Assembly: GCF_008153345.1 (NCBI RefSeq)
Contig: NZ_CP042818.1
Coordinates: 1,488,001 to 1,552,000, forward strand
Direction of reading: 5' to 3'
DNA length: 64,000 nucleotides
Source of the DNA: Treponema phagedenis
GTDB taxonomy: Bacteria; Spirochaetota; Spirochaetia; Treponematales; Treponemataceae
Under the pieces are notes generated by a model that saw only the letters and a list, made by a program, of their open reading frames with translations, was not told where the DNA came from and did no database searches. The position numbers and the translations under genes are program-made. This document shows positions 50,341-63,614 of the stretch, piece by piece; position 1 is the stretch's first letter; every line of letters begins with the position of its first letter.

Positions 50341-50844
50341 TTTAAGCATGCAAAAACGCCGGATATCTGCACAACGCTCTCCGGAGATTTTTGGTAGATG
50401 CCCTAAAGAACGAAAATAGAGATGGATTGCAAGTAATCGAATGCTATCCCTTTCTTTTAGACATAATTTATAAAATTGCTACTTGCATTTTTTTATACAA
50501 TTACTTAAAATATATCTATGATAAGGCGAAAATAGATGTTTTATATCTAAATATGTCTTGAGAGGGGAGATTTCTATTGTATGGATAGACCGATTTATCT
50601 AAGTGATTTCTCAACATGTTTTTTTAGGCTTATAAATAGCAGACTCAGTCTGTTATGTTTGGCACAGTTGTTGCCACACACACACACAGTACCTCGTCAT
50701 TTAAAAATAGCTTTACGCTCGAAAAAACTCAACGGACAAAAATAAGTATTTCTCAAATAAAAAAAGCTGTAAAAAGCCGGTTTTCTTTCATCTTTTTTTT
50801 TATAACGCAGCTATTTGGCGCACCTGGCATGGTAGAGTATAAGT
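50341..50844. other. Intergenic stretch before the WYL regulator
   Basis: No supported gene. It holds a short CA dinucleotide run (near 50677-50690) and AT-rich DNA. The start of the regulator gene has no strong ribosome site. A TTGGCG-N17-TATAAG pair ends at the ATG itself, too close to serve this start. Confidence 0.45.
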
Positions 50845-51789
50845 ATGGATAAAAAAGAAGGAAGACTGCGGTTTTGGCGAATATTGCAGCTGGACGAAGT
50901 AATACGCACAAAAAAATATCCTACACTCAAAACATTGGTTCAAGTGCTTGGCGTGAGTGCGCGAACAGTACAACGCGATATAGAATTTCTGCGGGACATG
51001 TATAATGCCCCGATCGAATACGACCACACGAGGCGCGGATATTTTTACACGGAAAATACCTTTTTTTTAAAAAGCGTTTTTTTAAATGAGGAAGAATTTT
51101 TTTCTGTTGCAATTTTTGAAAAACTTTTGCGTCAATACCGCAATACGCCGATTGAAAAACTTTTACAAGATGTATTTGAAAAAATACTTTCGATAATGCC
51201 GGATAAAGCTGTCTGTCTTGACACTTGTTGGCTTGATAATTCCGTTACCTTTATTGCAGATCCCGCTCCGAATATTAACAATCAAACTTTTTCTTCAGTA
51301 TTTAAAGCGGTTAAGGTGGGTATGCCTATAGGTTTTTTATACCGCAGCTTAAAAACCGATTCTTACGAAAAGCGAAAAATAAATCCATATCATATTATTT
51401 GCCAAAGAGGAGTTTGGTACGTTATAGGCTTTTGTCATACCAAAAATGATTTGCGCATTTTTTCCTTTAGCCGAATAAAAGATTTGCACCTTTTTGAAAA
51501 CGAAAAGTTTGAAGTGCCTGCTGATTTTAATCCCGAAAAATACATTGACAAAAACATCGGCGTGTGGCTGACCAAGCGCGAACCCTTTACCGTGCGGCTT
51601 TTATTTTCGAGCGAGGTTGGCGTATTTGCCGAAGAGCGGATGTGGAGCAAGGATCAAAAACTGAAAGTACACGATGATAAAACAGTTGAAGTAAGTTTTA
51701 AAACTACCCAACTTGAAGAAATAAAACGCTTTGTCTTAGGGCAGGGGGCAAACCGTGCAAGTACTGGAGCCGCAGGAATTACTCGATGA
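50845..51789 (+). CDS. WYL-domain transcriptional regulator, C-terminal frameshift
   Basis: A 314-aa DNA-binding regulator. The N-terminal helix-turn-helix is about residues 8-60 (TLKTLVQVLGVSARTVQRDIEFLRD). The WYL domain has KINPYHIICQRGVWYVIGFCHTKNDLRIFSFSRI near 172-210, and a WCX-like C-terminal part follows. The last residues are abnormal: after EIKRFVLGQGAN the normal end (VQVLEPQELLDEVRSELEKM) is encoded one frame over. It would finish at 51844 if one C near 51752-51756 were removed. WYL regulators such as CapW and BrxR often control anti-phage loci, and this one lies directly before the TerB/dynamin operon. Whether the altered tail still folds is unknown. Confidence 0.85.
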   Translation: MDKKEGRLRFWRILQLDEVIRTKKYPTLKTLVQVLGVSARTVQRDIEFLRDMYNAPIEYDHTRRGYFYTENTFFLKSVFLNEEEFFSVAIFEKLLRQYRNTPIEKLLQDVFEKILSIMPDKAVCLDTCWLDNSVTFIADPAPNINNQTFSSVFKAVKVGMPIGFLYRSLKTDSYEKRKINPYHIICQRGVWYVIGFCHTKNDLRIFSFSRIKDLHLFENEKFEVPADFNPEKYIDKNIGVWLTKREPFTVRLLFSSEVGVFAEERMWSKDQKLKVHDDKTVEVSFKTTQLEEIKRFVLGQGANRASTGAAGITR

Positions 51790-51947
51790 AGTAAGGTCTG
51801 AGCTTGAGAAAATGAGGCGGGTGTATGGAGACGCCGGCTGTTAAATAGTAATCAAGGCGTACGCGGAGATAAACTTTAATTTTTGCAAGTGTAAGAAAGC
51901 TTGCATGTGTAGAGAAAAATGAATTGTGGAAGTATATAGATTGAGGC

Positions 51948-52027
51948 GGTAACCTTGCAGAAACAAAGATGCGTTTTTGCAAGATAATCGATAAAAGATT
52001 TAAAGGTAACTAGTAACTGAGGTTACC
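51948..52027 (+). promoter_or_regulatory. Inverted-repeat operator cluster before the TerB-dynamin operon
   Basis: An 11-bp inverted repeat, CTTGCAGAAAC (51954-51964) and GTTTTTGCAAG (51973-51983), has one mismatch and an 8-bp gap. It is flanked by GGTAACC (51948-51954) and GGTTACC (52021-52027), themselves complementary, with GGTAACTAGTAACT between. The position 25-100 bp before the first operon gene suits a repressor site, plausibly for the WYL protein. No clear promoter hexamers were identified. Confidence 0.5.
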
Positions 52028-52051
52028 AAATATTGTTATAAGGAGTTTTAT

Positions 52052-52819
52052 ATGAACAATGATTTTGAAAACGAACGCTTACCCTTTGATGAGGAACGGC
52101 TTACTCGCTATGCCGAGTATTTGGACAATGTGGAAAAGTATTTTTTTCCAGAAGTACAAAAATCAAGTGGAATGATGGGTATCGGAAAAATAACAAGACA
52201 CTTGTATGACTTTTCGGAAAGCAATTTAGTTAGTGATTTTTTGAAGAATATTAACCCATATTTGGCATTTTTAAATTTTGATGCTGATGTCTCAGAAGAG
52301 GAAGTGAAAATACTTTTAGAAAAAAATGTCTATTTTAAACGCAATAAAAATATAAATGAAGTTGAAGAAGGATGTGTCCCTGCATCGTCTTTGGACGATG
52401 CAGATGATCGATATGATCTATTAGCAGAAATATGTGAGTCAGTGATAACTTTTGCAATATGGTGTGATTATAGTGCAAGCCCAATAGGTTTATGTATTTC
52501 AGAACTACTTGCGTACTCCATACTTGCATGCTGCGACGGCGTATACAGTAAAAATGAAAAGCGATTTATTAAAAAGATTTTTCGAAAAACAGGTTTTGAC
52601 TTAGAGTTTAAAGAAAAACTTGAAAAAATTATTGCAGAAGTCTGTCAATATGAGCAAGAAATTGAAAGTGTAAAAAAAGGTTTCGGTGAGGAAGAAGAAA
52701 AAGCTGTACAACTCAAAAAATTAAAAATACTGCAAAAGGCAAGCATTGATGAGTTGGTAACGCTTATGAGAAAAATAAAGAGAAAAAATGAAGTGATAAA
52801 GTATTATAAAAGATACTGA
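52052..52819 (+). CDS. TerB-like helical protein, first of a tandem pair
   Basis: A 255-aa cytoplasmic protein; no signal peptide or membrane segment seen. The central ISELLAYSILACCDGVYSKNEKRFIKKIFRKTGFD resembles the TerB/tellurite-resistance fold, in which a DG(x)xxxxE motif binds metal. A charged coiled-coil tail (LKKLKILQKASIDELVTLMRKI) follows. Its N-terminus (NNDFENERLPFDEERLTRYAEYLD) and C-terminal half are nearly identical to the next gene, while the middle differs. TAAGGAG is six bases or so before the ATG. Together with the downstream GTPases it suggests a membrane-stress or defence module. The TerB assignment is by eye and not certain. Confidence 0.6.
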   Translation: MNNDFENERLPFDEERLTRYAEYLDNVEKYFFPEVQKSSGMMGIGKITRHLYDFSESNLVSDFLKNINPYLAFLNFDADVSEEEVKILLEKNVYFKRNKNINEVEEGCVPASSLDDADDRYDLLAEICESVITFAIWCDYSASPIGLCISELLAYSILACCDGVYSKNEKRFIKKIFRKTGFDLEFKEKLEKIIAEVCQYEQEIESVKKGFGEEEEKAVQLKKLKILQKASIDELVTLMRKIKRKNEVIKYYKRY

Positions 52820-52851
52820 TAGTTACCAAATATTTTTATAAGGAGTTTTAT

Positions 52852-53550
52852 ATGAACAATGATTTCGAAAACGAACGATTGCCCTTTGATGAGGAGCGGC
52901 TTACTCGCTATGCCGAGTATTTGGATAAGGCGGAAGAAATTGCAGATGTTGGAGGTACTTCCTCATTGGCATATCATTGTGTTGGTCCTTTTTTAGCATT
53001 TTTAAACTTTGATTCGGATGTTTCGCTTGAAGAAGTGGAAAAACTTTTAAAGGGAAACATATTTTTTTATGACGATGACGATGACGATGACGATACACCA
53101 TATACGTTCCCTGAAGATCCTGATGATCGGTATGATGAAATATCGGAAATATGCGAAGCCAGAATTACTAAAAAGACCAATATTTATGTGCCCGGTTTTG
53201 AAGAGAACTTATTGCCTATTTCAGAATTGTTTGCTTACTCTGTGCTTTCATGCTGCGACGGTGTATACAGTAAAAGCGAAAAACGATTTATTAAAAAGAT
53301 TTTTAGAAAAGCAGGTTTTAATTTAAAATTTAAAGAAAAACTTGAAAAAATTATTGATGAAGTTTGTCAATATGAGCATGAAATTGAAACCGTAAAAAAT
53401 TCTTCCGATGCCGAAACACAAAAATCTTTACAACTTAAAAAATTAAAAATACTACAGAAGGCAAGCATAGATGAACTGGTAGAATTGATGAAGAACATCA
53501 TGGAAAACAAAGAAAAAAATACAAGAAAAAAAGGTTTTTGGTGGTGGTAG
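52852..53550 (+). CDS. TerB-like helical protein, second of a tandem pair
   Basis: A 232-aa paralogue of the preceding gene. The 35 bases before its start (AGTTACCAAATAT...TATAAGGAG) are also duplicated, so leader and gene were copied together. The TerB-like core is ISELFAYSVLSCCDGVYSKSEKRFIKKIFRKAGFN. It carries an eight-residue Asp run encoded by a repeated GACGAT hexamer (53070-53093) and ends in the unusual aromatic tail KKGFWWW. It is followed by 135 bases with a hairpin before the first GTPase. Confidence 0.6.
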   Translation: MNNDFENERLPFDEERLTRYAEYLDKAEEIADVGGTSSLAYHCVGPFLAFLNFDSDVSLEEVEKLLKGNIFFYDDDDDDDDTPYTFPEDPDDRYDEISEICEARITKKTNIYVPGFEENLLPISELFAYSVLSCCDGVYSKSEKRFIKKIFRKAGFNLKFKEKLEKIIDEVCQYEHEIETVKNSSDAETQKSLQLKKLKILQKASIDELVELMKNIMENKEKNTRKKGFWWW

Positions 53551-53578
53551 TTTTATATAATTGAAGAAATAGGTATAG

Positions 53579-53603
53579 CCGGTAGCGCAAAAACCGCTAC
53601 CGG
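53579..53603 (+). promoter_or_regulatory. GC-rich hairpin between TerB-like and GTPase genes
   Basis: Perfect 9-bp arms CCGGTAGCG (53579-53587) and CGCTACCGG (53595-53603) around CAAAAAC. There is no T-run, so it is not a standard terminator. It could tune read-through or protect the GTPase message. Confidence 0.5.
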
Positions 53604-53685
53604 TATGCGTTTACTTGGTGCGAATGTTTTATGAATATATTAAATTTGCAAGACTTGGAAATCTTGTATATACGGAGGAAAAAAA

Positions 53686-55365
53686 ATGATAGGTATACAA
53701 AAAGAATTTAGTGGATTACTTTCTGAAGTAATATCAATTACAAAAGAATGTAAAATTGAAAATGGTAAAGCGGAAGCTTTAAAAGATGCGGTTGACAACA
53801 TGCATCTGCCTGTGGCTATTGTAGGAGAATTCAGTGCAGGTAAATCCACTATGCTGAATAACTTCATTGGAAAAAAACTATTGGCGACAAACATCAAACC
53901 GGAAACAGCCATTGCATCGGAATTATATTATTCCGAAATTGAATATGCTGAAGGAGTTAAAGGTGACGGTACTGTTGTCCGCTTAAGCGATACGGATACT
54001 GTCGGCGCAGACTTTAAATGTATTCGCCGTTATATTAACAGTGAAAACTTAAAGGCTATTCAGCCGCTTGTGTTAGTTGACATGCCCGGTTTTGATTCTC
54101 CGCTTGACAGTCACTCAAAAGCTATTCTCAGCTACTTGAGTGAAGCAGTTCACTACATCGTTTTAACGCCAGCTGACAGCGGCACAATTACCTCAAGTAT
54201 GAAAAGACAGCTGGAAAATATTGTAGAGTTTAAAAAAGACTTGACCTTTTTTGTCAGTAAAACCGATTTACGGAGCGATGAAGAAGCTAATGCCGTTGTT
54301 CAGCATATGGAATCGGAAATAGAAAATATTTTGGGCGTACAAAAAAAGGTTGGAAAAATAAATCAGGAAGAGACAAAAGTTTTTTCCGATATGGTAAAAA
54401 CACTTGATCCTGCAGCTCTCTTTAAAAATGCTTTTATGGATTCAATGAAAGATGTGTTTTACGAAACTCGAATGTCAATTAATACACGACTTGCCGCACT
54501 TAAAAATGACGAGAAAAAAAATAAAATCGCAATACAAGAACTTGAAGCAGCTCGCGATCGCTTAAAAGAGAGAAAAGAAAAATTGATAGCCGAAAAAAAA
54601 CAGTATGCATATTCAAATGAAGCCGATGTTATTTCTTCGGCGGTAGGAAATACTATTAACTCCAACATGGATTCCCTTGTTGCGATTGCAATGGGTGGCG
54701 GAGCTGATGCGCTAACCGAAGAAATAAACAGTATTATACAAAACACTGTAATTGAAAAAGTAAACAAGGTTATAGAAAACGTAAGTATGAACTTTTCTAC
54801 AAGTTTTGGTAATGAATGTAAAGAATTGAATAACTTGCTGGATTCTTTTAACTCTTCAGGTTTTATCAACAATCTTCAAAATAAAGCACAAAACTGGTAC
54901 AACTCAAGCAGAGAAAAAATAAATTTATATATTCAAAAACGGGAGGAAAAAGGTGGAAATGTTGCATACACGTCTATTACAGGTGTTCTCGCTGCTACAA
55001 CTGACATTGTCCATCCTATTGCTGAGGTAATAATTATATTGCTTCCGGAAATTATCAATTTGATTTTTGCAGAAATAGACAAACAAAATAAACAAGAGGA
55101 AATTCGCCAAAAGATTATCGGGCAAATGCCTACTATCAAGCGCAATATCCGTACAAAGGTTGTAGAAATTTTGCAGCAAAACTCAGAAGCTCTTATTCAA
55201 AAAATTTCTGAGCAGTTTGATGAAGCACTTAAAACAAAAACAAAAGAAATTCAAGCTGCGCAGGCTGAGTTGGAAAAAAACACTAATATCCCCGAACAAA
55301 TTGCCCAGCTGGAAAGTAATTATAAAAAACTTGAAGCTCTTGAAAAAAAACTTTTAAGTTATTAG
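53686..55365 (+). CDS. Dynamin-like GTPase 1 with C-terminal membrane segment
   Basis: A 559-aa large GTPase. G1 is GEFSAGKST (47-55), G2 Thr74 (PETAI), G3 DMPG (132-135) and G4 SKTD (191-194, in place of NKxD). Helical and coiled-coil stretches follow (about 265-310), then a hydrophobic patch (about 425-462, GVLAATTDIVHPIAEVIIILLPEIINLIF) that looks like a membrane-insertion paddle, and a final coiled coil. This is the layout of bacterial dynamin-like proteins, which tubulate or fuse membranes on GTP hydrolysis. AGGAGG precedes the ATG. The second GTPase starts 9 bp after its stop. Confidence 0.85.
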   Translation: MIGIQKEFSGLLSEVISITKECKIENGKAEALKDAVDNMHLPVAIVGEFSAGKSTMLNNFIGKKLLATNIKPETAIASELYYSEIEYAEGVKGDGTVVRLSDTDTVGADFKCIRRYINSENLKAIQPLVLVDMPGFDSPLDSHSKAILSYLSEAVHYIVLTPADSGTITSSMKRQLENIVEFKKDLTFFVSKTDLRSDEEANAVVQHMESEIENILGVQKKVGKINQEETKVFSDMVKTLDPAALFKNAFMDSMKDVFYETRMSINTRLAALKNDEKKNKIAIQELEAARDRLKERKEKLIAEKKQYAYSNEADVISSAVGNTINSNMDSLVAIAMGGGADALTEEINSIIQNTVIEKVNKVIENVSMNFSTSFGNECKELNNLLDSFNSSGFINNLQNKAQNWYNSSREKINLYIQKREEKGGNVAYTSITGVLAATTDIVHPIAEVIIILLPEIINLIFAEIDKQNKQEEIRQKIIGQMPTIKRNIRTKVVEILQQNSEALIQKISEQFDEALKTKTKEIQAAQAELEKNTNIPEQIAQLESNYKKLEALEKKLLSY

Positions 55366-55374
55366 AAGAATAAG

Positions 55375-57600
55375 ATGAGTACTGAAATACTAAATAGGAT
55401 ATGTGACTTAAGAAGTCAATTTGATGATTTATGCAACCGCCATTCCGATGACGAAAGTTTTATGGATGCAGTACATGATGCCTGCAAAGATTTTAGCGAA
55501 GTAGAAAAAATAAAAGAATCATACCAAAAAGATACCGATACTGATAGGCTTTTGCGAATAGGTATTGTTGGACGCGTAAAAGTGGGAAAATCTTCTTTGC
55601 TTAACTCTCTTATTTTTGATGGGAAGGATATTTTGCCGAAGGCCGCAACGCCTATGACCGCAGCTCTAACATATCTTGAATACGGTGAAAAAGTTGCGGT
55701 AACCGTAGAATTTTTTACAGAAGGCGATATTAAAAAATTAAAAGAAAATGCTGAAGACTATGAGAAACGTTTAAAGAATAAACAAGAAGAATGTTTTAAA
55801 AAACTTAAAGAACGTCGCAGCAGAAATCCGCAAACAACTCCGTCTGATTCGCAAATTAAGGAAGATGCTATAAAACAAGCTGAAAAAGAAATAAGAGGAG
55901 AGAATCTTTCTCTTTCGGCTGCATACGACCAATATCAGCGTATAGAAAGAGCAGGCAGTAATATTCGCGTAGAAATAGAAAGGGGCGAAAAAATAATACC
56001 GGTAAATTCAATTGATGACATAGCATCCGTTTTGACAGACTATGTTGGTGAAAGCGGTCCCTATATGCCGTTTACGCGTAACGTAAACATAAGGCTTCCG
56101 CTTGATGTACTAAAAGAAGTAACCATAGTTGATACTCCCGGTTTTAACGACCCTGTTCCTTCTCGAGATGATAAGGCGCGTGAGCTTTTAAGCAATTGCG
56201 ATGTTGTTTTAATTTTGAGTCCGGCGAACCAAATGCTTTCAAAAAGCGATACGGATGTGTTATCAAAGATTACCACCAAAGACGGAATCCAAGAAATATT
56301 TATTGTGGCAAGCCAATTTGACAACACGCTTTTTGGCGGAGAAGTAAAAGCGGAAGCCAATGGAAAATTAGAGGACGCAGTTGAATCAAATAAAATAAAA
56401 TTATCTAAACAAATAAAAGATGTTTTATCGGGTGAGATAAACAGTGACGGAGTTTTTAATACAATTCTCAAAGAAGGAGAAAAACGTATATTCCATTCAT
56501 CGGGGCTTTGTCAGGCAATGTTGCAAACATGGGAGAGTAAAGCAAGTTGGGATGAAGGTAGAAAAAAAGTTTGGTCAAATTTGTCCCGAGACTATGCCGA
56601 TTATTTTTCCGATAATAATGCCGAAACCTCAAAACATTTTTTAGAATATTTAGGAAATATAGCCGCCATAAATGGCAGTATTGAAAGTGTAAAAATACAA
56701 AAGAAAAAGATATTCAAAGATAAGCTCGAAAAATTTGAACAAAGGCATATAACTATTGCGCAAGACAGTAAAAAACAAATTTTAGAATATGTTGAACAAA
56801 GAAAGAATGACATTAAAACAAGGGACCTTGAAAAATTAACAAAAGAGATTGAAAGTATTGAAGAGTTTGCCGGAAAAATACGACCTGCTTTAAAAGATAT
56901 TTTTGCAGATACTATTGACGGCTGGTATTTTGAAACGCGAAATGATTGTAAAATCCTTTTAAAAAATTTTTTTTCCGAGGCAAAAGGCGGAATTGACAGT
57001 GCCGAAGGAAGTGATAGCAAATCATGGACAACAGGGCATTTGTTCTGGAAAAAACACCATTCAGAAACTTTTACCACAGTAAAAACCGCAACTGTTAAAG
57101 ATGCTATTAGACGTTTTATCCAAAGTTTTAATGCGGATGTCAGTCTTTTTGTACAAGAACAAAATCTAAATTTAATACGAAAATTAAGCTCTGCCGTTGC
57201 TCAGTTTTGGGGTGCTGAAGCATCTGAAGAATCGATGAGCATTCATGAAATTAGAAATGCTGTCCGCTCTCTTGTAGCATCGGTAATTGATGACGAGATT
57301 AAATACGCCGGTGAAACTTCTTTTTCTTCCGAAACAGGGATTTTAACAGACTCTTATGCAGAAGATTTTTTAGATGAAGCAAATGAATTTATTGGTAAAT
57401 TGGAATCTGAATTTACCGAACTTGCCAATGATAAGATTAAAGAAACAAAGGCTCGCTTAAGCAAGGTCGATTTTGCAAAAAGCATACTGGAAAAATATGA
57501 AAAAATACTCGAAACAAAAAAGAAAGAAGCCGAAGCACCGAAACTTGCTTTAGAAAACTTACAAAGAATTCAAAAAGAAGTGGAGGCTATCGAATGCTAA
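55375..57600 (+). CDS. Dynamin-like GTPase 2 with large insert
   Basis: A 741-aa GTPase with G1 GRVKVGKSS (66-74), G2 Thr95 (TPMTA), G3 DTPG (253-256) and G4 SQFD (313-316, degenerate). Between G2 and G3 lies an unusual insert of about 140 residues, much of it charged coiled coil (about 110-180). Long helices fill the remaining half. No membrane helix is evident, so it may act with its neighbours as a hetero-oligomer, as tandem bacterial dynamins do. It begins 9 bp after GTPase 1 and overlaps GTPase 3 by 7 bp, so the three are translationally coupled. Confidence 0.83.
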   Translation: MSTEILNRICDLRSQFDDLCNRHSDDESFMDAVHDACKDFSEVEKIKESYQKDTDTDRLLRIGIVGRVKVGKSSLLNSLIFDGKDILPKAATPMTAALTYLEYGEKVAVTVEFFTEGDIKKLKENAEDYEKRLKNKQEECFKKLKERRSRNPQTTPSDSQIKEDAIKQAEKEIRGENLSLSAAYDQYQRIERAGSNIRVEIERGEKIIPVNSIDDIASVLTDYVGESGPYMPFTRNVNIRLPLDVLKEVTIVDTPGFNDPVPSRDDKARELLSNCDVVLILSPANQMLSKSDTDVLSKITTKDGIQEIFIVASQFDNTLFGGEVKAEANGKLEDAVESNKIKLSKQIKDVLSGEINSDGVFNTILKEGEKRIFHSSGLCQAMLQTWESKASWDEGRKKVWSNLSRDYADYFSDNNAETSKHFLEYLGNIAAINGSIESVKIQKKKIFKDKLEKFEQRHITIAQDSKKQILEYVEQRKNDIKTRDLEKLTKEIESIEEFAGKIRPALKDIFADTIDGWYFETRNDCKILLKNFFSEAKGGIDSAEGSDSKSWTTGHLFWKKHHSETFTTVKTATVKDAIRRFIQSFNADVSLFVQEQNLNLIRKLSSAVAQFWGAEASEESMSIHEIRNAVRSLVASVIDDEIKYAGETSFSSETGILTDSYAEDFLDEANEFIGKLESEFTELANDKIKETKARLSKVDFAKSILEKYEKILETKKKEAEAPKLALENLQRIQKEVEAIEC

Positions 57601-59384
57601 GCGGTATTGTAGGGTATGCGGTACTACCGGCTGTTTTATTTATTGCATTTCTCATAGTAGTTTTTTTAAGTGTAAAAAAACAAAAACAAATAACTGCCGA
57701 ACTTGCTCAGCGTACCAAAATATATGATGAGCAAAGCGAGGTGCTTAAAAACACACAATTAGCAAAGGATGAGGTTGATGCCGAGCTTGTTCAGCGTATC
57801 AAAATGTATGATGAGCAAAGCGAGGTGCTTAAAGAGACGCAGTCGGCAAAAGAAAAAGTAGACGCCGAGCTTGCTCAGCGTACTCAGATGTATGATGAAC
57901 AAAGTGAAAAGCTTAAAGAAGCTCAATCGGTAAAGGACGAACTGGGCACCAATCTTTCTTTTATAGCATCGGTATTCAATGCGCCCCCTGTGGAAAATGA
58001 GAGTCTAGAAGAATTTTCACGATTACTTAATCATGATTATATAGAATATGCGAATAAAAATGATTCTCTCGCCGAAGAAGCAACCGCTTTTTTACAACTT
58101 CAAAATGTAGAACGGGAACTGCAACTTGTGGTGAACTGCCCAATTCTTTATAAGAAAAACATCGTTGCATTGGCAGGGAGCTTTAGCAGCGGTAAGTCAT
58201 CATTTATCAATAGCTTATTTCAAAATAATGACATAAGACTTCCGACAGGAATTCAACCCGTTACTGCGCTCCCTGCTTATATTATTGCGGGAGAAAAACC
58301 GTCAATTACGGGGTACTCTTGGGTTGGTGGCATTGTTAATATAACAAAAGAAATGTTCAAAAAATTCTCGCACGATAAATTAAAAAGTTTTTCATTTAGT
58401 ATTAAAACTATTTTGCCCTATGTAACGATCAATGCTAAATTATCGAATGCCTTTGAACATATTTGTTTTATTGATACTCCGGGATATAACCCGGGAACTA
58501 AAACGGAGAGTGATATGCAAACATCTCTTGAATATGTTGAACAGGCTTCAGCCTTAATTTGGGTAATAAGTGTTGAATCCGGAACATTAACAAATGATGA
58601 TCGTGAGATGTTGGAAAAGATTTTTGATCAAGATCCGAATAAACAATTATTTGTTGTTTGCAATAAAGCGGATTTACGTACAGAAGATGAGGTAGAAGAT
58701 GTTTGTGAAGAAATAAGAGAACAATTAGATATGTTCGGCATACCCTATGTAGATCTAATGCCGTATTCATCCTTGGGATTAGACGATGCTTTAGATAGTG
58801 ATAAAAGCTCGCCGCTGCAGTCTTTTTTTAAAAGTTTAAATCATAAAAATACGCACAAAGCTAATCACCTTAAAAGTATTGTCAAAGATATATTCAACCG
58901 ATATATTACTGCCGATGAAGATAGGATTGAGCATCTTACAAAATATAAAGCTATGTTAAATAAAATAAATTTAAATATTTTTGCAGCAGTTGAAAAAATG
59001 CAGTCCGACATATCATATTATAAAATCAGAATGGATAAAAAGTTTAAGAAGGAAAGTAAGAAAAAAGCAGAGGGGACAGAAGAGAATGATCCTCTTTCTG
59101 CTCTTGGATTGTTTTTTGGTTCAAATCGTAAAAAAGCTGTGAAACAAGAAAAAGAAACTGAAAAGCAAAGAGGAAAGAAAATGCAAGAAACTGTAAATCA
59201 AGCAGACAAAGAAATTAATGAACAGATTTTCGATGAAGAAGATGACGGATATAGCGAAACATTAATGGAAATGATGAAGGACTATGCTTCGAAAATAGAG
59301 GCATACGAAGATGATATTAGAACCGCAAAAAAACTTCGCGATAAAATGCTTGCATGTATATCGGATATATTTTCCAATGAATAA
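57594..59384 (+). CDS. Dynamin-like GTPase 3, N-terminally anchored, with coiled-coil repeats
   Basis: A 596-aa GTPase. An N-terminal membrane helix (about 5-27, VGYAVLPAVLFIAFLIVVFL) is followed by three tandem 28-residue coiled-coil repeats (about 35-118, unit AELAQRTKIYDEQSEVLK...). The GTPase domain follows with G1 GSFSSGKSS (195-203), G3 DTPG (294-297) and a canonical G4 NKAD (357-360). The C-terminal part is charged and helical. It looks like a membrane-tethered dynamin-family protein with a stalk that holds the G domain off the membrane. It starts inside the end of GTPase 2 and is the last complete gene of the run. Confidence 0.83.
   Translation: MLSGIVGYAVLPAVLFIAFLIVVFLSVKKQKQITAELAQRTKIYDEQSEVLKNTQLAKDEVDAELVQRIKMYDEQSEVLKETQSAKEKVDAELAQRTQMYDEQSEKLKEAQSVKDELGTNLSFIASVFNAPPVENESLEEFSRLLNHDYIEYANKNDSLAEEATAFLQLQNVERELQLVVNCPILYKKNIVALAGSFSSGKSSFINSLFQNNDIRLPTGIQPVTALPAYIIAGEKPSITGYSWVGGIVNITKEMFKKFSHDKLKSFSFSIKTILPYVTINAKLSNAFEHICFIDTPGYNPGTKTESDMQTSLEYVEQASALIWVISVESGTLTNDDREMLEKIFDQDPNKQLFVVCNKADLRTEDEVEDVCEEIREQLDMFGIPYVDLMPYSSLGLDDALDSDKSSPLQSFFKSLNHKNTHKANHLKSIVKDIFNRYITADEDRIEHLTKYKAMLNKINLNIFAAVEKMQSDISYYKIRMDKKFKKESKKKAEGTEENDPLSALGLFFGSNRKKAVKQEKETEKQRGKKMQETVNQADKEINEQIFDEEDDGYSETLMEMMKDYASKIEAYEDDIRTAKKLRDKMLACISDIFSNE
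57696..57947 (+). repeat. 84-bp tandem repeat, three units, inside GTPase 3
   Basis: Units begin at 57696, 57780 and 57864. Each encodes 28 residues, exactly four heptads, so unit gain or loss would keep the frame and lengthen the coiled-coil stalk by a fixed step. Confidence 0.85.
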
Positions 59385-59420
59385 GGTATACTGCGTAATA
59401 CAATAAGGAGGTTTAACCCC

Positions 59421-60209
59421 ATGCACAACTTTACCAACAACCTCATTCCGCCGGGACTTTCCGGCGACCGGCAATCCGTGTTTCATTGCACAGCCTGCGG
59501 GCATGGCTTTATTGCAACCGCAAAAGCCGCGGGAATATTTTCTCCCTTTGGGAAAAACCCCAAATGCCCGAAATGCGGCAGCCGCAAAACAATTGAAAAT
59601 AGCAATGCATTAAAAGGAATAACGATGAACGAACTCGCACGGAAAAACACCATGCCCGAAAAGGGCGACATCTTAATGATTGACCGCGGTATATACAAAC
59701 ACTTTGGCATATACAGTGGAGAACAAACGGTTATCCATTATGCCGACAAATCCGGAGACTGGGGCGGAAATATTTGCATACAGAAAATTCCTCTTTCAGA
59801 GTTTGTAAAAGGAGCAACCGTTACCGTATGCAAAATACCGCAGTCATACCGCAGAAATCACACCGTATATTCGCCGGAAGAAACGGTGCGCAGGGCGCGC
59901 TCTCGGCTTTGAGAGCGTGAATATAATTTGGTTACCAACAATTGCGAGCACTTTGCTCTTTGGTGCAAAACGGGTGTTTCAACCTCCGAGCAGGTAACCA
60001 CTGTGTTAAGCGTGCTTGCCGGCGGGGCATTGGCAATCGCCGGAATCAAAAAAATAGCCGACGCCCTTGATTCCGAAGAGCCCGCCGATGTAATTCTCGG
60101 CACACTCAGCCTTGCCGGAGCTGCGGGCATTGCGATTGTAAACGCTTTGAGTGATTCTCCAACAACCGAAACAAAAGGGACTATCAAATCAGGGTATAAA
60201 TCTTTTTAA
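59421..60209 (+). pseudogene. Zinc-ribbon/LRAT-type (NC domain) protein interrupted by an in-frame TGA
   Basis: The frame encodes a four-Cys zinc ribbon (Cys23, 26, 49, 52), then an LRAT/NC-type domain: GDILMIDRGIYKHFGIYSG (His94), VIHYADKSGDWGG (His106), and after the stop NNCEHFALWCKTG with the active-site Cys at codon 175. Two hydrophobic stretches end it. LRAT-fold enzymes acyl-transfer or cleave phospholipids. A TGA at codon 164 (59910-59912) replaces the Gly expected in SRLGEREYNL, so a single-base change (GGA to TGA) separates the histidines from the cysteine. AAGGAGG precedes the ATG. It follows GTPase 3 by 36 bp, so its partner may be the dynamin operon. Confidence 0.78.
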
Positions 60210-60388
60210 CGATTTTGAAATAGCAAATAAAAAGGACGACAAGCTCAAGGTCTTACATTGGGCAAAGCTCCAAGAGGAGCAAAAACTATGGAAAGGACAA
60301 AGTGGCTGTTTTGCACGGAGCAACCGCACTTACCTTTTTAATTAAACCCCCAGTGCACAGCACGGAACAGTGCACAAAGGAGATTGAT

Positions 60389-63300
60389 ATGAAAAAAATA
60401 TTTGGAATGCAAACTTTGATCCTCATTGCGGCGGCAAGTGTGTTGTTTTTTTGCGGGTGTAAAAAAGTACACGACAAAACAACCGTTAGCATAATGGTAA
60501 AAGGAGATGCCAATGTAACATCGCAAGAAACAACAATTACCGCAGTAAAAAATGACAAATGGGTAATAGTAAAAACTAAACTGCCTACACTGACCTTTGA
60601 AGAAAACTATGAGCTTGACTCGTGGCACCTCACTGATGCGAACGGTGCCGTACTGAAAGACAACGATACTTTTGCAACCGATACGGTTATTTTTGCCGTA
60701 TCAAAGCGCAGTCAAATTACGGTAACTATTGCCGGTGATGCGAACGTAATCCTTCCGGCAAATAAAACTGTTACGATAGACAAGGGCGAGAAGTGGGCAA
60801 CAGTAAAAACTAAGCTGCCTACTCTTGGCTTTCAAGAAAATTACGAGCTTGACAAATGGGTGCTTTCAGGTTCAAGTACCGCTGTTGAAGATTTCTATGT
60901 ATTTAAAGGCGGAGAAATTCTGAATGCGATTTCAAAGCGCAGTCAAGTTACAGTAACGATTGCCGGTGATTCGAATGTAATCCTTCCGGCAAGTAAAATT
61001 GTTACGGTGGATAAGGGCGAGAGCTGGGCAACAGTAAAAACTAAGCTGCCTACCCTTGGCTTTGAAGAAAACTATGTGTTTGACAAATGGGTGCTTTTAG
61101 GCTCAAGTGACGCTATTGCAGCTTCCTATGCGTTTAACGGCGGCGAAACTATTTTTGCCGTAGCAAAGCATAGTCAAGTTACAGTGACGATTACCGGTGA
61201 TTCCAATGTAATCGTTCCAGCAAATAAAACTGTTACAATAGACAAGGGCGAAAACTGGGCAACAGTAAAAACTAAGCTACCTACTCTTGGCTTTAAAGAA
61301 AACTACGAGCTTGATAAATGGGTGCTTTCAGGTTTAAGCGACGCTATTGCAGATTCCTATGAGTTTAACGGCGAAGAAACTATTTTTGCCGTGTCAAAGC
61401 GCAGTCAAGTTACGATAACTATTGCAGGCGATGAAGATACGGTACACCTTCCTACAAATAAAACTTTTATGGTAGATAAAGGCAGCACTTTAACAGAGAT
61501 AAAAAATAATATCGAAATACAAAATGCAATGGCAATGGTAAAACCGCAAGAATACTACGGGGACCCAATTGTTTGGTACCTTAGCGATGAAAACGGTGAA
61601 AAACTTGAAGAGTATACCGGAACGTTTAATGCCGATACAACTTTGTATGCGGTAGCAAAATTAAAACCGACGCCTGCTACGCAGTTTGACATAACCAGTG
61701 ATGGAATAATTTTGGAGATAAAAGGTGATGATCAAGTGCTTGTAATTCCTGAAGAAATAAATGGAACGCCGGTTACTGCAATCTCTATAAATCTGAATTT
61801 GCGCCCTAGATTCGTTAGGGAACTGAGGTTGCCTAAGACGCTGCAACATATTGCTCGCGGAGCTTTTGACTCTTGGAATATAACAAAGCTTACGATTCAA
61901 ACGGAAAATATCTCGTTTACGATGAAAGGTGTAAAGATACAAGAGCTTGTTTTAGCAGATACGGTTAAGACTATCGGAATGGCAACTTTTTCAAATTGCA
62001 GCGGCATAAAAAAACTCACACTGCCTGCCGGACTACAACGTATCGGGAGTATGGCTTTTGAAGGTTGCAGCGGAATCTCGGCACTTACACTGCCTGACGA
62101 GCTGCAACATATTGAAAGGGAAGCTTTTAAAGACTGCCACGGCATTAAGGGAGAGCTCAATTTGCCTGCCGAACTGGTAACTCTTGGATATGAAGCTTTT
62201 TTGAACTGCACTGGTATAACGGGAGAGTTGAGGTTGCCTTCTAAGTTAAAACGCATTGAAAGCAGTACTTTTTCTGGTTGCAAGGGAATTACGGCCGTTA
62301 GGTTTCCTTCCGGGCTGGAAAAAATCGATTATGCAGCTTTTAAAAACTGTAGTGGCATTGAGGAAGAACTTGAATTACCTACTGAATTGCAGACTATCGG
62401 ATAAGAAGCTTTTAAGGGCTGCGCCAATATTACGGGAGAACTGAAGCTGCCTGCTAGGTTGCAGACTATCGAAAGAGAAGCTTTTTGCGACTGCAACATA
62501 ACAAAACTTGTAATAGAAATGGAAAATATTACGTTTAGAAGCAACGAGGTATTCAACCATAAAAATATAAAAGAGCTTGTTTTATTGGATACGGTTAAAA
62601 CCATCGGTCAGGAGGCTTTTTCCGGCTGTAGCGGTATTGCGGGAGAATTGAAGTTGCCTGCCGGGCTGGAAAACATTTATTCGAATGCTTTTTCCGAATG
62701 CAGCAGCATCACGACACTTACACTGCCTGAGGGGCTGCAAAGCATCGGTGGCAGCGCTTTTTCCGGCTGTGGCATAACAAAGCTTACGATAGGAATGGAA
62801 AATATTACGTTTAAAAGCAACGAGATATTTGCTGCTAACTGCACAACCATACAAGAGCTTGTTTTATTGGATACAGTTAAAACTATCGGTCAGGATGCTT
62901 TTTCCGGCTGTGGCATAACAAAGCTTATAATAGGAATGGAAAACATCAAGTTTAAAAGCAATGAGATGTTCAAAGATAGCTATACAAATATAAAAGAGCT
63001 TGTTTTATTGGATACGGTTAAAACCATCGGTCAGGAGGCTTTTTCCGGTTGCGAGAACATCACAGGAGAACTAAGACTGCTAGGAGGGCTGCAAAGTATC
63101 GGAGCCGCCGCTTTTTCCGGTTGCAAGAACATCACAGGAGAACTAAGACTGCTAGGAGGGCTGCAAAGTATCGGAGCCGCCGCTTTTTCCGGTTGCAAGA
63201 ACATCACAGGAGAACTAAGACTGCCAGGAGGACTGCAAACTATTAGCCAGAGCGCTTTTTCCTACTGCAGCAGCATCACGACACTTACACTGCCTGAGGG

Positions 63301-63614
63301 GCTGCAAAGCATCGGTGGCAGCGCTTTTTCCGGCTGCAGCGGTATCACGGAACTTACACTGCCTGAGGGGCTGCAAACTATCGAACTTAAATGCTTTTAA
63401 AGGCTGCGTGAACGCAAGCATAAAACTGCCTAGAAGCATTACGAATATAGAGTTAGGTGCTTTTGGTACCGGTGCCATGGGAAGTAAAGCATGTAAAGCA
63501 GTGCTGATACCTTATCCGGAAGGAACTGAGGATTACACTCGACTATTTTACATGATATATTCACCTAGAAGTGGATATGGATATCCCGGTCCGATACGCT
63601 CATACACCCCCTAA
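60389..63614 (+). pseudogene. BspA-like leucine-rich-repeat lipoprotein gene, broken by a stop and a frameshift
   Basis: Starts with a lipoprotein signal (TLILIAAASVLFF, Cys22 or Cys24) behind AAAGGAG; the frame opens earlier at 60302 but has no ribosome site there. About four repeats of ~78 residues follow (VTIAGDANVILPANKTVTIDKGE...ATVKTKLPTLGF), resembling secreted B-repeat modules, then BspA-type LRRs (LPxGLQSIGxxAFSGC). An in-frame TAA at 62402-62404 falls in LQTIG-EAFKGC, where a coding codon is expected; the frame then continues to 63400. A +1 shift near 63382-63397 moves the true C-terminus (AFKGCVNASIKLPRSITN to SYTP) into another frame ending at 63614. BspA proteins mediate host attachment. 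As it stands the gene makes at most a truncated protein. Confidence 0.8.
63038..63253 (+). repeat. 72-bp tandem repeat, three units, in the BspA-like LRR region
   Basis: Units start at 63038, 63110 and 63182 and encode 24 residues each (AFSGC.NITGELRL.GGLQ). The first two are almost identical, so the array has expanded recently by slippage or recombination. Confidence 0.85.

What the first reader, a model, noticed from the sequence alone, without database searches (positions are those of the whole stretch)
50845..60209. Candidate new system: WYL regulator, paired TerB-like proteins, three dynamin-like GTPases and an LRAT-type enzyme
Three non-identical dynamin-family GTPases lie end to end with 9-bp gaps or overlap, each with its own membrane strategy: a C-terminal paddle, none with a large insert, and an N-terminal anchor with stalk. 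They are preceded by two TerB-like paralogues and a WYL regulator, and followed by a zinc-ribbon/LRAT-type protein of a fold known to act on lipids. Bacterial dynamin pairs remodel membranes, LeoBC-type dynamins were reported as the Eleos anti-phage system, and WYL proteins (CapW, BrxR) commonly control defence islands. I recognise no published system with this full set. A membrane-surveillance or abortive-infection role is inference.
Basis: partly seen in the sequence, partly recalled or inferred. Interest (0 to 1): 0.92.

Follow-up and report, generated by a model that had tools for sequence, protein, structure and literature searches.

The report
Three-dynamin bacterial defence-like operon
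A spirochaete carries a regulator-led set of three different membrane-remodelling dynamin enzymes that recurs as one unit across about ten bacterial phyla, often on plasmids and beside anti-virus genes, so it looks like a widespread three-dynamin membrane defence system not in the catalogue checked.

Summary
The window encodes an HTH-WYL-WCX regulator, two tandem proteins with weak but real TerB similarity, three intact dynamin-family GTPases, and a zinc-ribbon/LRAT protein. The LRAT frame is cut by an in-frame TGA just before its catalytic NCEHF motif. The core is a conserved module. 60 of 80 related loci across about ten phyla have DYN1-DYN2-DYN3 collinear and nearly gapless. The three proteins co-evolve (distance correlations 0.91-0.95), and WYL lies upstream in 18 of 45 testable loci. 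The module is sporadic, plasmid-borne in places, and near Zorya-like, CBASS or other defence genes. TerB pairs sit inside the operon in Shewanella and Pseudoalteromonas, where most DYN1 carry a fused patatin phospholipase, so the lipid-enzyme link recurs. The same genome has a second copy beside a type II CBASS and a third WYL cassette with other GTPases. All three share a sigma-54-like promoter, and the genome's only three LRAT genes close these cassettes. The DYN3 membrane anchor is not a family trait. DYN1 and DYN2 resemble the Campylobacter Cj-DLP tethering pair more than LeoA/LeoBC (Eleos). Most likely this is a WYL-controlled, membrane-acting anti-phage or anti-plasmid system. That function is inferred, not shown.

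The parts
50659..50674 (+). Sigma-54-type promoter TTGGCAC-N5-TTGC, 171 bp before the WYL start
   Evidence: Exact pattern occurs 8 times in the 3.37 Mb genome (reversed control 1); three of the 8 precede the WYL genes of the three cassettes; RpoN gene present, 3 strong Sigma54_activat proteins
50845..51789 (+). HTH-WYL-WCX transcription factor, probable operon regulator
   Evidence: Pfam; PADLOC WYL 133.8 bits; WYL upstream on the same strand in 18/45 related loci
52052..52819 (+). TB1, TerB-like protein (first of a tandem pair; 59% identical to TB2)
   Evidence: Alignment; TerB profile and hhalign; no homologue in 269 family genomes
52852..53550 (+). TB2, TerB-like paralogue of TB1 (first 25 residues identical)
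53686..55365 (+). DYN1: dynamin-like GTPase with paddle-like hydrophobic segment near the C-terminus
   Evidence: Dynamin_N E 6.6e-17; 57/60 homologues have the segment about 117 aa from the C-terminus; nearest solved structures Nostoc BDLP1 and C. jejuni 5owv_C
55015..55071 (+). DYN1 paddle-like hydrophobic segment (residues 444-462)
   Evidence: Kyte-Doolittle 19-residue peak 2.09 at residue 453
55375..57600 (+). DYN2: dynamin-like GTPase with a long insert between G1 and G3, no hydrophobic segment
   Evidence: Dynamin_N E 9.2e-22; nearest solved structure C. jejuni 5owv_A (E 3.4e-20)
57594..59384 (+). DYN3: short dynamin-like GTPase, N-terminal membrane anchor, long coiled coil, two-helix stalk
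   Evidence: Dynamin_N E 2.6e-15; AlphaFold pLDDT 84.3; Foldseek IniA, BDLP, mitofusin and Cj-DLP
57618..57674 (+). DYN3 N-terminal membrane anchor (residues 9-27)
   Evidence: KD peak 2.98 at residue 18; rare in homologues
59421..59912 (+). Zinc ribbon plus N-terminal part of LRAT domain (both conserved His present), ends at in-frame TGA
   Evidence: LRAT E 9.7e-11; sequence
59910..59912 (+). In-frame TGA inside the LRAT domain, before the catalytic NCEHF
   Evidence: intact paralogue in L011 18717-19190
59928..60209 (+). Remainder of the LRAT frame: NCEHF motif and hydrophobic C-terminal tail
   Evidence: LRAT profile 103-119; same frame as 59421

Best explanation
It is a horizontally mobile immune-type operon built on three co-evolving dynamin-like GTPases under a WYL regulator. 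Proposed working: (1) WYL keeps the operon low and releases or activates it when infection- or damage-derived ligands appear; in this genome transcription may start from a sigma-54 promoter. (2) DYN1 and DYN2 form a hetero-oligomer like the C. jejuni Cj-DLP1/2 tetramer: DYN1 inserts its paddle into the inner membrane and DYN2 gives the paddle-free, insert-bearing assembly partner. DYN3, a short dynamin with a coiled-coil arm that is membrane-anchored in this lineage, docks or nucleates the pair as a third subunit. (3) TerB-like proteins act as adaptors at the membrane. (4) When phage or plasmid entry, assembly or lysis disturbs the membrane, GTP-driven assembly clusters or remodels it. A linked lipid enzyme (LRAT here, patatin fused to DYN1 in Shewanella, Vibrio, Pseudoalteromonas and Evansella) alters lipids, sealing or killing the cell before the invader spreads. 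Shown here: gene content, intact GTPase motifs (G4 degenerate in DYN2), collinearity, co-evolution, WYL, TerB and lipid-enzyme association, mobility and defence neighbourhood. Inferred: all biochemistry, the direction of WYL control, the complex, and anti-invader function.
For: 60/80 related loci are contiguous DYN1-2-3 with median gaps of 3.5 and -4 bp, across about ten phyla by record title. Mirror-tree r is 0.95, 0.91 and 0.93 (0.87, 0.76 and 0.82 on 49 non-redundant loci), 0/2000 permutations. WYL upstream in 18/45 loci, against well under 1 expected at the genome-wide density (my arithmetic). Plasmid copies in Calditerrivibrio, P. aeruginosa, E. coli and Photobacterium; the PA7 chromosomal DYN2 is 100% identical to two plasmid copies. 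P. aeruginosa copy beside EH-signature protein plus helicase, Zorya-like. Second copy in this genome beside a type II CBASS: patatin, CD-NTase, E2. Flanking proteins hit 84 PADLOC families versus 22 for equal-sized control regions of the same genomes. Patatin-DYN1 fusions and TerB pairs inside the operon. Sporadic: 8/274 family and 6/345 phylum genomes. Profiles closest to the Cj-DLP pair, whose 2:2 tetramer tethers membranes (PMC6104087). WYL proteins CapW and BrxR control defence operons (PMC9122588, PMC9122601); DynA delays phage lysis (PMC8844932).
Against: No functional assay exists. LRAT is present in few loci and broken in the window; patatin and TerB are each in few loci, so they may be optional. 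The PADLOC enrichment comes from one sample of 130 flank proteins; L051/L052 are near-duplicates and helicase models cross-match. WYL is not detected in 27/45 loci with my narrow profile. C. jejuni DLPs were linked to colonisation and LeoABC to vesicle release, so non-defence membrane roles are precedented.
Confidence: 0.6

Rival explanations
1. General envelope-stress or membrane-repair operon: three dynamins keep the membrane intact after any damage (antibiotics, pore formers), without being specific to phages or plasmids; WYL senses DNA damage or stress.
For: B. subtilis DynA does both antibiotic membrane surveillance and phage protection (PMC8844932); WYL proteins such as PafBC respond to DNA damage (PMC11804915); sigma-54 promoters often serve stress regulons (own knowledge).
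Against: Sporadic distribution, plasmid carriage, defence neighbours and duplication with swapped interiors fit accessory conflict genes better than housekeeping.
Confidence: 0.17
2. Secretion or vesicle system acting on the host, like the proposed role of LeoABC in ETEC or the C. jejuni DLP pair in colonisation.
For: Weak LeoA/LeoBC profile similarity; Leo deletions halve vesicle output (PMC4159319).
Against: The operon is found in free-living bacteria: hot-spring Calditerrivibrio, plant and soil Pseudomonas, Thiothrix, sediment MAGs. No secretion genes travel with it.
Confidence: 0.08
3. Plasmid or mobile-element function, for example entry exclusion or protection of the element's own transfer, with phage defence incidental.
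For: In Photobacterium pPGC22 the dynamins lie between TraU and TraN genes; several copies are on plasmids.
Against: Most found copies are on non-plasmid contigs and no tra genes are shared between loci.
Confidence: 0.12
4. Only the dynamin core is functional; TB1/TB2, LRAT and even WYL are hitchhikers of a cassette-exchange site in this genome.
For: Window and third cassette share both ends (WYL 78-85%, LRAT 91%) but have different interiors; LRAT is broken in the window and truncated in the third cassette; TB1/TB2 are unique to this genome among those searched.
Against: WYL, TerB-family and lipid enzymes recur with the trio in unrelated bacteria.
Confidence: 0.2

Closest known systems
Eleos / LeoA-LeoBC dynamin defence system (PADLOC LeoA, LeoBC; LeoABC of ETEC H10407, PMC4159319)
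   Same: Tandem bacterial dynamin genes on islands; DYN1 weakly matches LeoA and DYN2 of some loci LeoBC (38-50 bits)
   Different: Leo is two dynamins (LeoC+LeoB is one split protein); here three full dynamins plus WYL. Window DYN2 gives no LeoBC hit at E 0.01; LeoA is not among the 60 shown PDB matches of the DYN1 profile
Campylobacter jejuni Cj-DLP1/Cj-DLP2 tethering pair (PDB 5OWV, PMC6104087)
   Same: DYN2 and DYN1 profiles best or near-best match its two chains (E 3.4e-20 and 6.9e-13); adjacent heterotypic genes
   Different: No third dynamin or WYL is described in that operon; G-domain-centred similarity only
Nostoc BDLP1 (PDB 2J68)
   Same: Best PDB match of the broad DYN1 profile (E 2.9e-19); hydrophobic paddle
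   Different: No triple operon known to me; cyanobacterial
CapW/BrxR WYL regulators (PMC9122588, PMC9122601)
   Same: HTH-WYL-WCX protein encoded first in a defence-type operon
   Different: Putative sigma-54 promoter in this genome; operator and ligand unknown; dynamin is not mentioned in either paper
B. subtilis DynA (PMC8844932)
   Same: Dynamin that restricts phage spread by acting on the membrane
   Different: Single fused chromosomal protein, no WYL, TerB or lipase
CBASS patatin effector (CapV type)
   Same: Patatin phospholipase fused to DYN1 in four loci; a CBASS patatin sits beside the second copy
   Different: No cyclase is part of the triple-dynamin operon itself

Membership tests
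Dynamin superfamily | Large GTPase domain with G1, G2, G3, G4 | tested here: met
   PF00350 above cut-off in all three; G1 and G3 intact; DYN2 G4 degenerate
Dynamin superfamily | Helical stalk next to the G domain | tested here: met
   DYN3 AlphaFold model and Foldseek to IniA, BDLP and mitofusins, E about 1e-12; DYN1/2 by profile only
Eleos (LeoA/LeoBC) | Proteins score as LeoA and LeoBC family members | tested here: not met
   20-50 bits over partial lengths; window DYN2 none; the Firmicute triple none
Eleos (LeoA/LeoBC) | Two-dynamin gene content | tested here: not met
   Three separate dynamins, 60/80 loci collinear
Eleos (LeoA/LeoBC) | Experimentally shown phage protection | not testable with these tools
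   No assay
WYL defence regulator (CapW/BrxR type) | HTH plus WYL plus WCX | tested here: met
WYL defence regulator (CapW/BrxR type) | Binds a palindrome over its own promoter | tested here: inconclusive
   CAGACTCAGTCTG at 50640-50652 abuts the sigma-54 site but is not conserved in the third cassette
TerB family | Profile match to TerB | tested here: inconclusive
   Pfam none; custom profile 18.7/22.7 bits and hhalign 82%; model too poor
LRAT/HRASLS enzymes | Domain with His, His and NCEHF catalytic Cys in one chain | tested here: not met
   Residues all encoded but split by TGA 59910-59912; paralogue in L011 intact
CBASS | CD-NTase in the operon | tested here: not met
   None in the window operon; a separate CBASS flanks the second copy

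The most novel reading that the evidence does not exclude
An undescribed immune system in which three heterotypic dynamins act as a GTP-driven sensor of membrane perturbation and switch on an associated phospholipase or acyltransferase (patatin fused to DYN1, or LRAT), a bacterial counterpart of Mx/GBP/IRG immunity, placed under WYL and, in this spirochaete, sigma-54 control.
Probability: 0.35. Interest if true: 0.9.

Novelty: new variant of a known kind. Interest (0 to 1): 0.74.

Why it matters
Known bacterial dynamin defence (Eleos, DynA) rests on one or two dynamins with unclear mechanism. An ancient, mobile, co-evolving three-dynamin module that carries TerB and lipid-hydrolase partners, one fused directly to a dynamin, would link membrane sensing to lipid attack. 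It would give a tractable system for asking whether animal dynamin-family immunity (Mx, GBP, IRG) has bacterial counterparts.

Tried and rejected
IMG/VR scan with window DYN2 alone and tblastn of DYN1 in phages: no relatives, so phage origin of these genes was dropped. A sigma-54 site as a general feature of the operon: rejected, 2 hits in 82 loci against 1.4 expected; it belongs to this genome's WYL cassettes. The palindrome before the promoter as a conserved WYL operator: rejected, not shared with the other cassettes. TerB by AlphaFold/Foldseek: poor model, no answer. Homology of TB1/TB2 specifically to the gammaproteobacterial operon TerB proteins: not supported (hhalign 0.1%); only general TerB-family similarity. 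The DYN3 membrane anchor as a defining trait: rejected. A second genetic code to read through the TGA: not pursued, one isolated stop with an intact paralogue. Zinc ribbons as a universal partner: rejected, 7/54 loci. Whole-genome download was not available.
Full report
**Gene content.** WYL (HTH_11, WYL, WCX) is followed by two tandem paralogues, three dynamin-family GTPases (Dynamin_N 62.5, 78.3 and 57.3 bits) and a zinc-ribbon/LRAT gene. Each GTPase keeps its G1 and G3 motifs. The LRAT frame is stopped by TGA at 59910-59912 and resumes, in the same frame, with the catalytic NCEHF. A whole-genome search scores the two parts as one domain with one TGA. An intact paralogue exists. The window gene is therefore either a recent nonsense allele or a sequence error, and as read it would lack its catalytic cysteine.

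**TerB claim.** Pfam does not call TB1 or TB2. A profile built from 30 spirochaete TerB domains finds both (18.7 and 22.7 bits; hhalign 82%, E 1e-5, against 0.4% for the reversed sequences), aligned on the ADG...E...I motif region. AlphaFold gave an all-helical but low-confidence model (pLDDT 47). TB1/TB2 have no homologue in 269 family genomes. Independently, Pfam-significant TerB proteins sit inside other triple-dynamin operons: pairs in Shewanella (L108, L115) and Pseudoalteromonas (L116), single in Vibrio (L110) and Anaerobiospirillum (L099) (Pfam confirmed for L108 and L099). So the 'TerB plus dynamins' association is real, although the window pair is not demonstrably orthologous to those.

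**Conservation of the trio.** Seeded with nine DYN2 homologues, a GTDB scan returned 126 confirmed loci, of which 80 were kept. Of the 80, 60 carry contiguous DYN1-DYN2-DYN3 on one strand, with median gaps of 3.5 and -4 bp; others are permuted (1-3-2, 3-1-2) or incomplete, some cut by contig ends. Titles span Spirochaetota, Fibrobacterota, Pseudomonadota, Campylobacterota, Latescibacterota, Bacteroidota, Fusobacteriota, Bacillota, Synergistota and others; a plasmid copy adds Deferribacterota. Pairwise distances of the three proteins correlate at 0.95, 0.91 and 0.93, and at 0.87, 0.76 and 0.82 after redundancy removal, with 0 of 2000 permutations reaching them. The three travel and evolve together.

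**Membrane features.** DYN1 has a hydrophobic segment about 117 residues from its C-terminus in 57/60 loci, DYN2 in 1/60, and DYN3 a strong one in 5/60. The paddle of DYN1 is thus a family trait; the N-terminal anchor of the window's DYN3 is not. DYN3 models well (pLDDT 84.3): a long N-terminal coiled coil, a G domain and a two-helix stalk. Its best folds are IniA, BDLP1, mitofusin 1 and the C. jejuni pair.

**Closest structures.** DYN2 and DYN1 profiles match the two chains of the C. jejuni Cj-DLP1/2 complex (5OWV, E 3.4e-20 and 6.9e-13). The broad DYN1 profile ranks Nostoc BDLP1 first, and LeoA is absent from the 60 hits shown. In that C. jejuni complex two different dynamins form a 2:2 tetramer that tethers membranes (PMC6104087). 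I take this as the working model for DYN1/DYN2, with DYN3 an added third subunit (inference).

**Mobility and defence context.** Only 8 of 274 family genomes and 6 of 345 phylum genomes match, and the six other genus members lack it. Copies lie on plasmids, and the PA7 DYN2 is 100% identical to two P. aeruginosa plasmid copies. In P. aeruginosa ppae01 the order is WYL, DYN1, DYN2, DYN3 next to an EH-signature protein and a helicase, as in Zorya (the Zorya reading is mine). Flanks of 20 loci hit 84 PADLOC families among 130 proteins, against 22 families for 130 control proteins from the same genomes. Caveats: one sample, two near-duplicate loci, cross-matching helicase models. WYL lies upstream on the same strand in 18 of 45 loci.

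**Same-genome copies.** A second locus (L011) has WYL, a small ApoL-like glycine-rich protein, DYN1, DYN2, DYN3 with a C-terminal zinc ribbon, a zinc-ribbon protein, then patatin, CD-NTase and E2 (type II CBASS) and an intact LRAT gene. Its DYN1 is broken by two frameshifts at homopolymer runs, and the CD-NTase is also split, so sequencing error or decay cannot be separated. A third cassette (L148) has a closely related WYL gene interrupted by a transposase, DUF697-type membrane proteins, two other P-loop GTPases, and a truncated LRAT. Window and third cassette match at both ends (WYL 78-85%, LRAT 91%) but not inside, which suggests exchange of interiors between shared ends. The genome has just three LRAT matches, one at the end of each cassette.

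**Promoter.** TTGGCAC-N5-TTGC occurs 8 times in the genome. Three of the eight lie upstream of the three WYL genes; three more are copies of one repeat and two lie inside genes. RpoN and three strong sigma-54 activator proteins are encoded. Elsewhere the motif is not enriched before the operon. I regard sigma-54 control in this genome as likely but unproven.

**Lipid enzyme link.** In Shewanella, Vibrio, Pseudoalteromonas and Evansella, DYN1 is fused to an N-terminal patatin phospholipase (E 5.9e-28 to 2.6e-26). One of the two Shewanella loci (L115) has TerB proteins but no fusion. LRAT genes lie downstream in Paludibacteraceae and another Treponema (L062, L075). A lipid-acting enzyme is thus a recurrent though not universal partner, and in four loci it is physically joined to the paddle dynamin. 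This is the best clue to mechanism.

**Known versus new.** PADLOC LeoA/LeoBC models score these proteins at only about 20-50 bits over part of their length, and not at all for the Firmicute version. LeoABC is two dynamins, one of them split (PMC4159319). The trio is therefore not Eleos by profile or by gene count, though related in kind; current tools may still label parts of some loci as 'Dynamins'. My literature searches found no description of a three-dynamin WYL operon, but only open-licence papers were searchable. One paper reports three dynamin-like proteins on a Helicobacter pylori island without a defence reading (PMC8935386).

**Verdict.** I think it is an anti-phage or anti-plasmid membrane system (about 0.6), a new variant of dynamin-based defence. 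Function and mechanism remain untested.

Noticed in passing
L148 (G000:C1:1243500-1257000): Third WYL cassette with the same sigma-54 site but different cargo: DUF697-type proteins and two MMR_HSR1/AIG1-like GTPases; its WYL gene is interrupted by a transposase and its LRAT is truncated into a BspA-like repeat gene.
   Followed up: partly
L159 2166-3154 (G000:C1 about 1687666-1688572): Fourth related WYL gene with an in-frame stop, followed by Sel1-repeat proteins; its promoter region keeps only a degenerate sigma-54-like site.
   Followed up: partly
L108 3834-7457, L109 4371-8324, L110 4998-8663, L116 1815-5483: Patatin phospholipase fused to a dynamin (1207-1317 aa) inside triple-dynamin operons.
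   Followed up: partly
L028, L029, L030: A second dynamin trio architecture in spirochaetes: WYL, dynamin, small coiled-coil protein, membrane-anchored coiled-coil dynamin, dynamin.
   Followed up: partly
L104, L105, L106, L111, L114, L117, L119, plasmids L037/L038: A branch in Bacillota, enterics and Synergistota has a short DYN3 (about 415 aa) followed by a conserved 820-960 aa protein (Sel1 repeat in one) that may be its effector.
   Followed up: partly
L011 16978-17908: The CBASS CD-NTase beside the second copy is split into two frames, as is that copy's DYN1 at homopolymer runs; error or decay not separable.
   Followed up: partly
window 52010-52100 and 52815-52900: The leader before TB1 (GGTTACCAAATATT..AAGGAGTTTTATATGAACAAT) is repeated before TB2 and the first 25 residues are identical: recent tandem duplication or conversion.
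   Followed up: yes
window 60302-63614: BspA-type leucine-rich-repeat surface protein genes with repeat-rich DNA directly downstream; related repeats also follow the third cassette and may mediate recombination between cassettes.
   Followed up: partly
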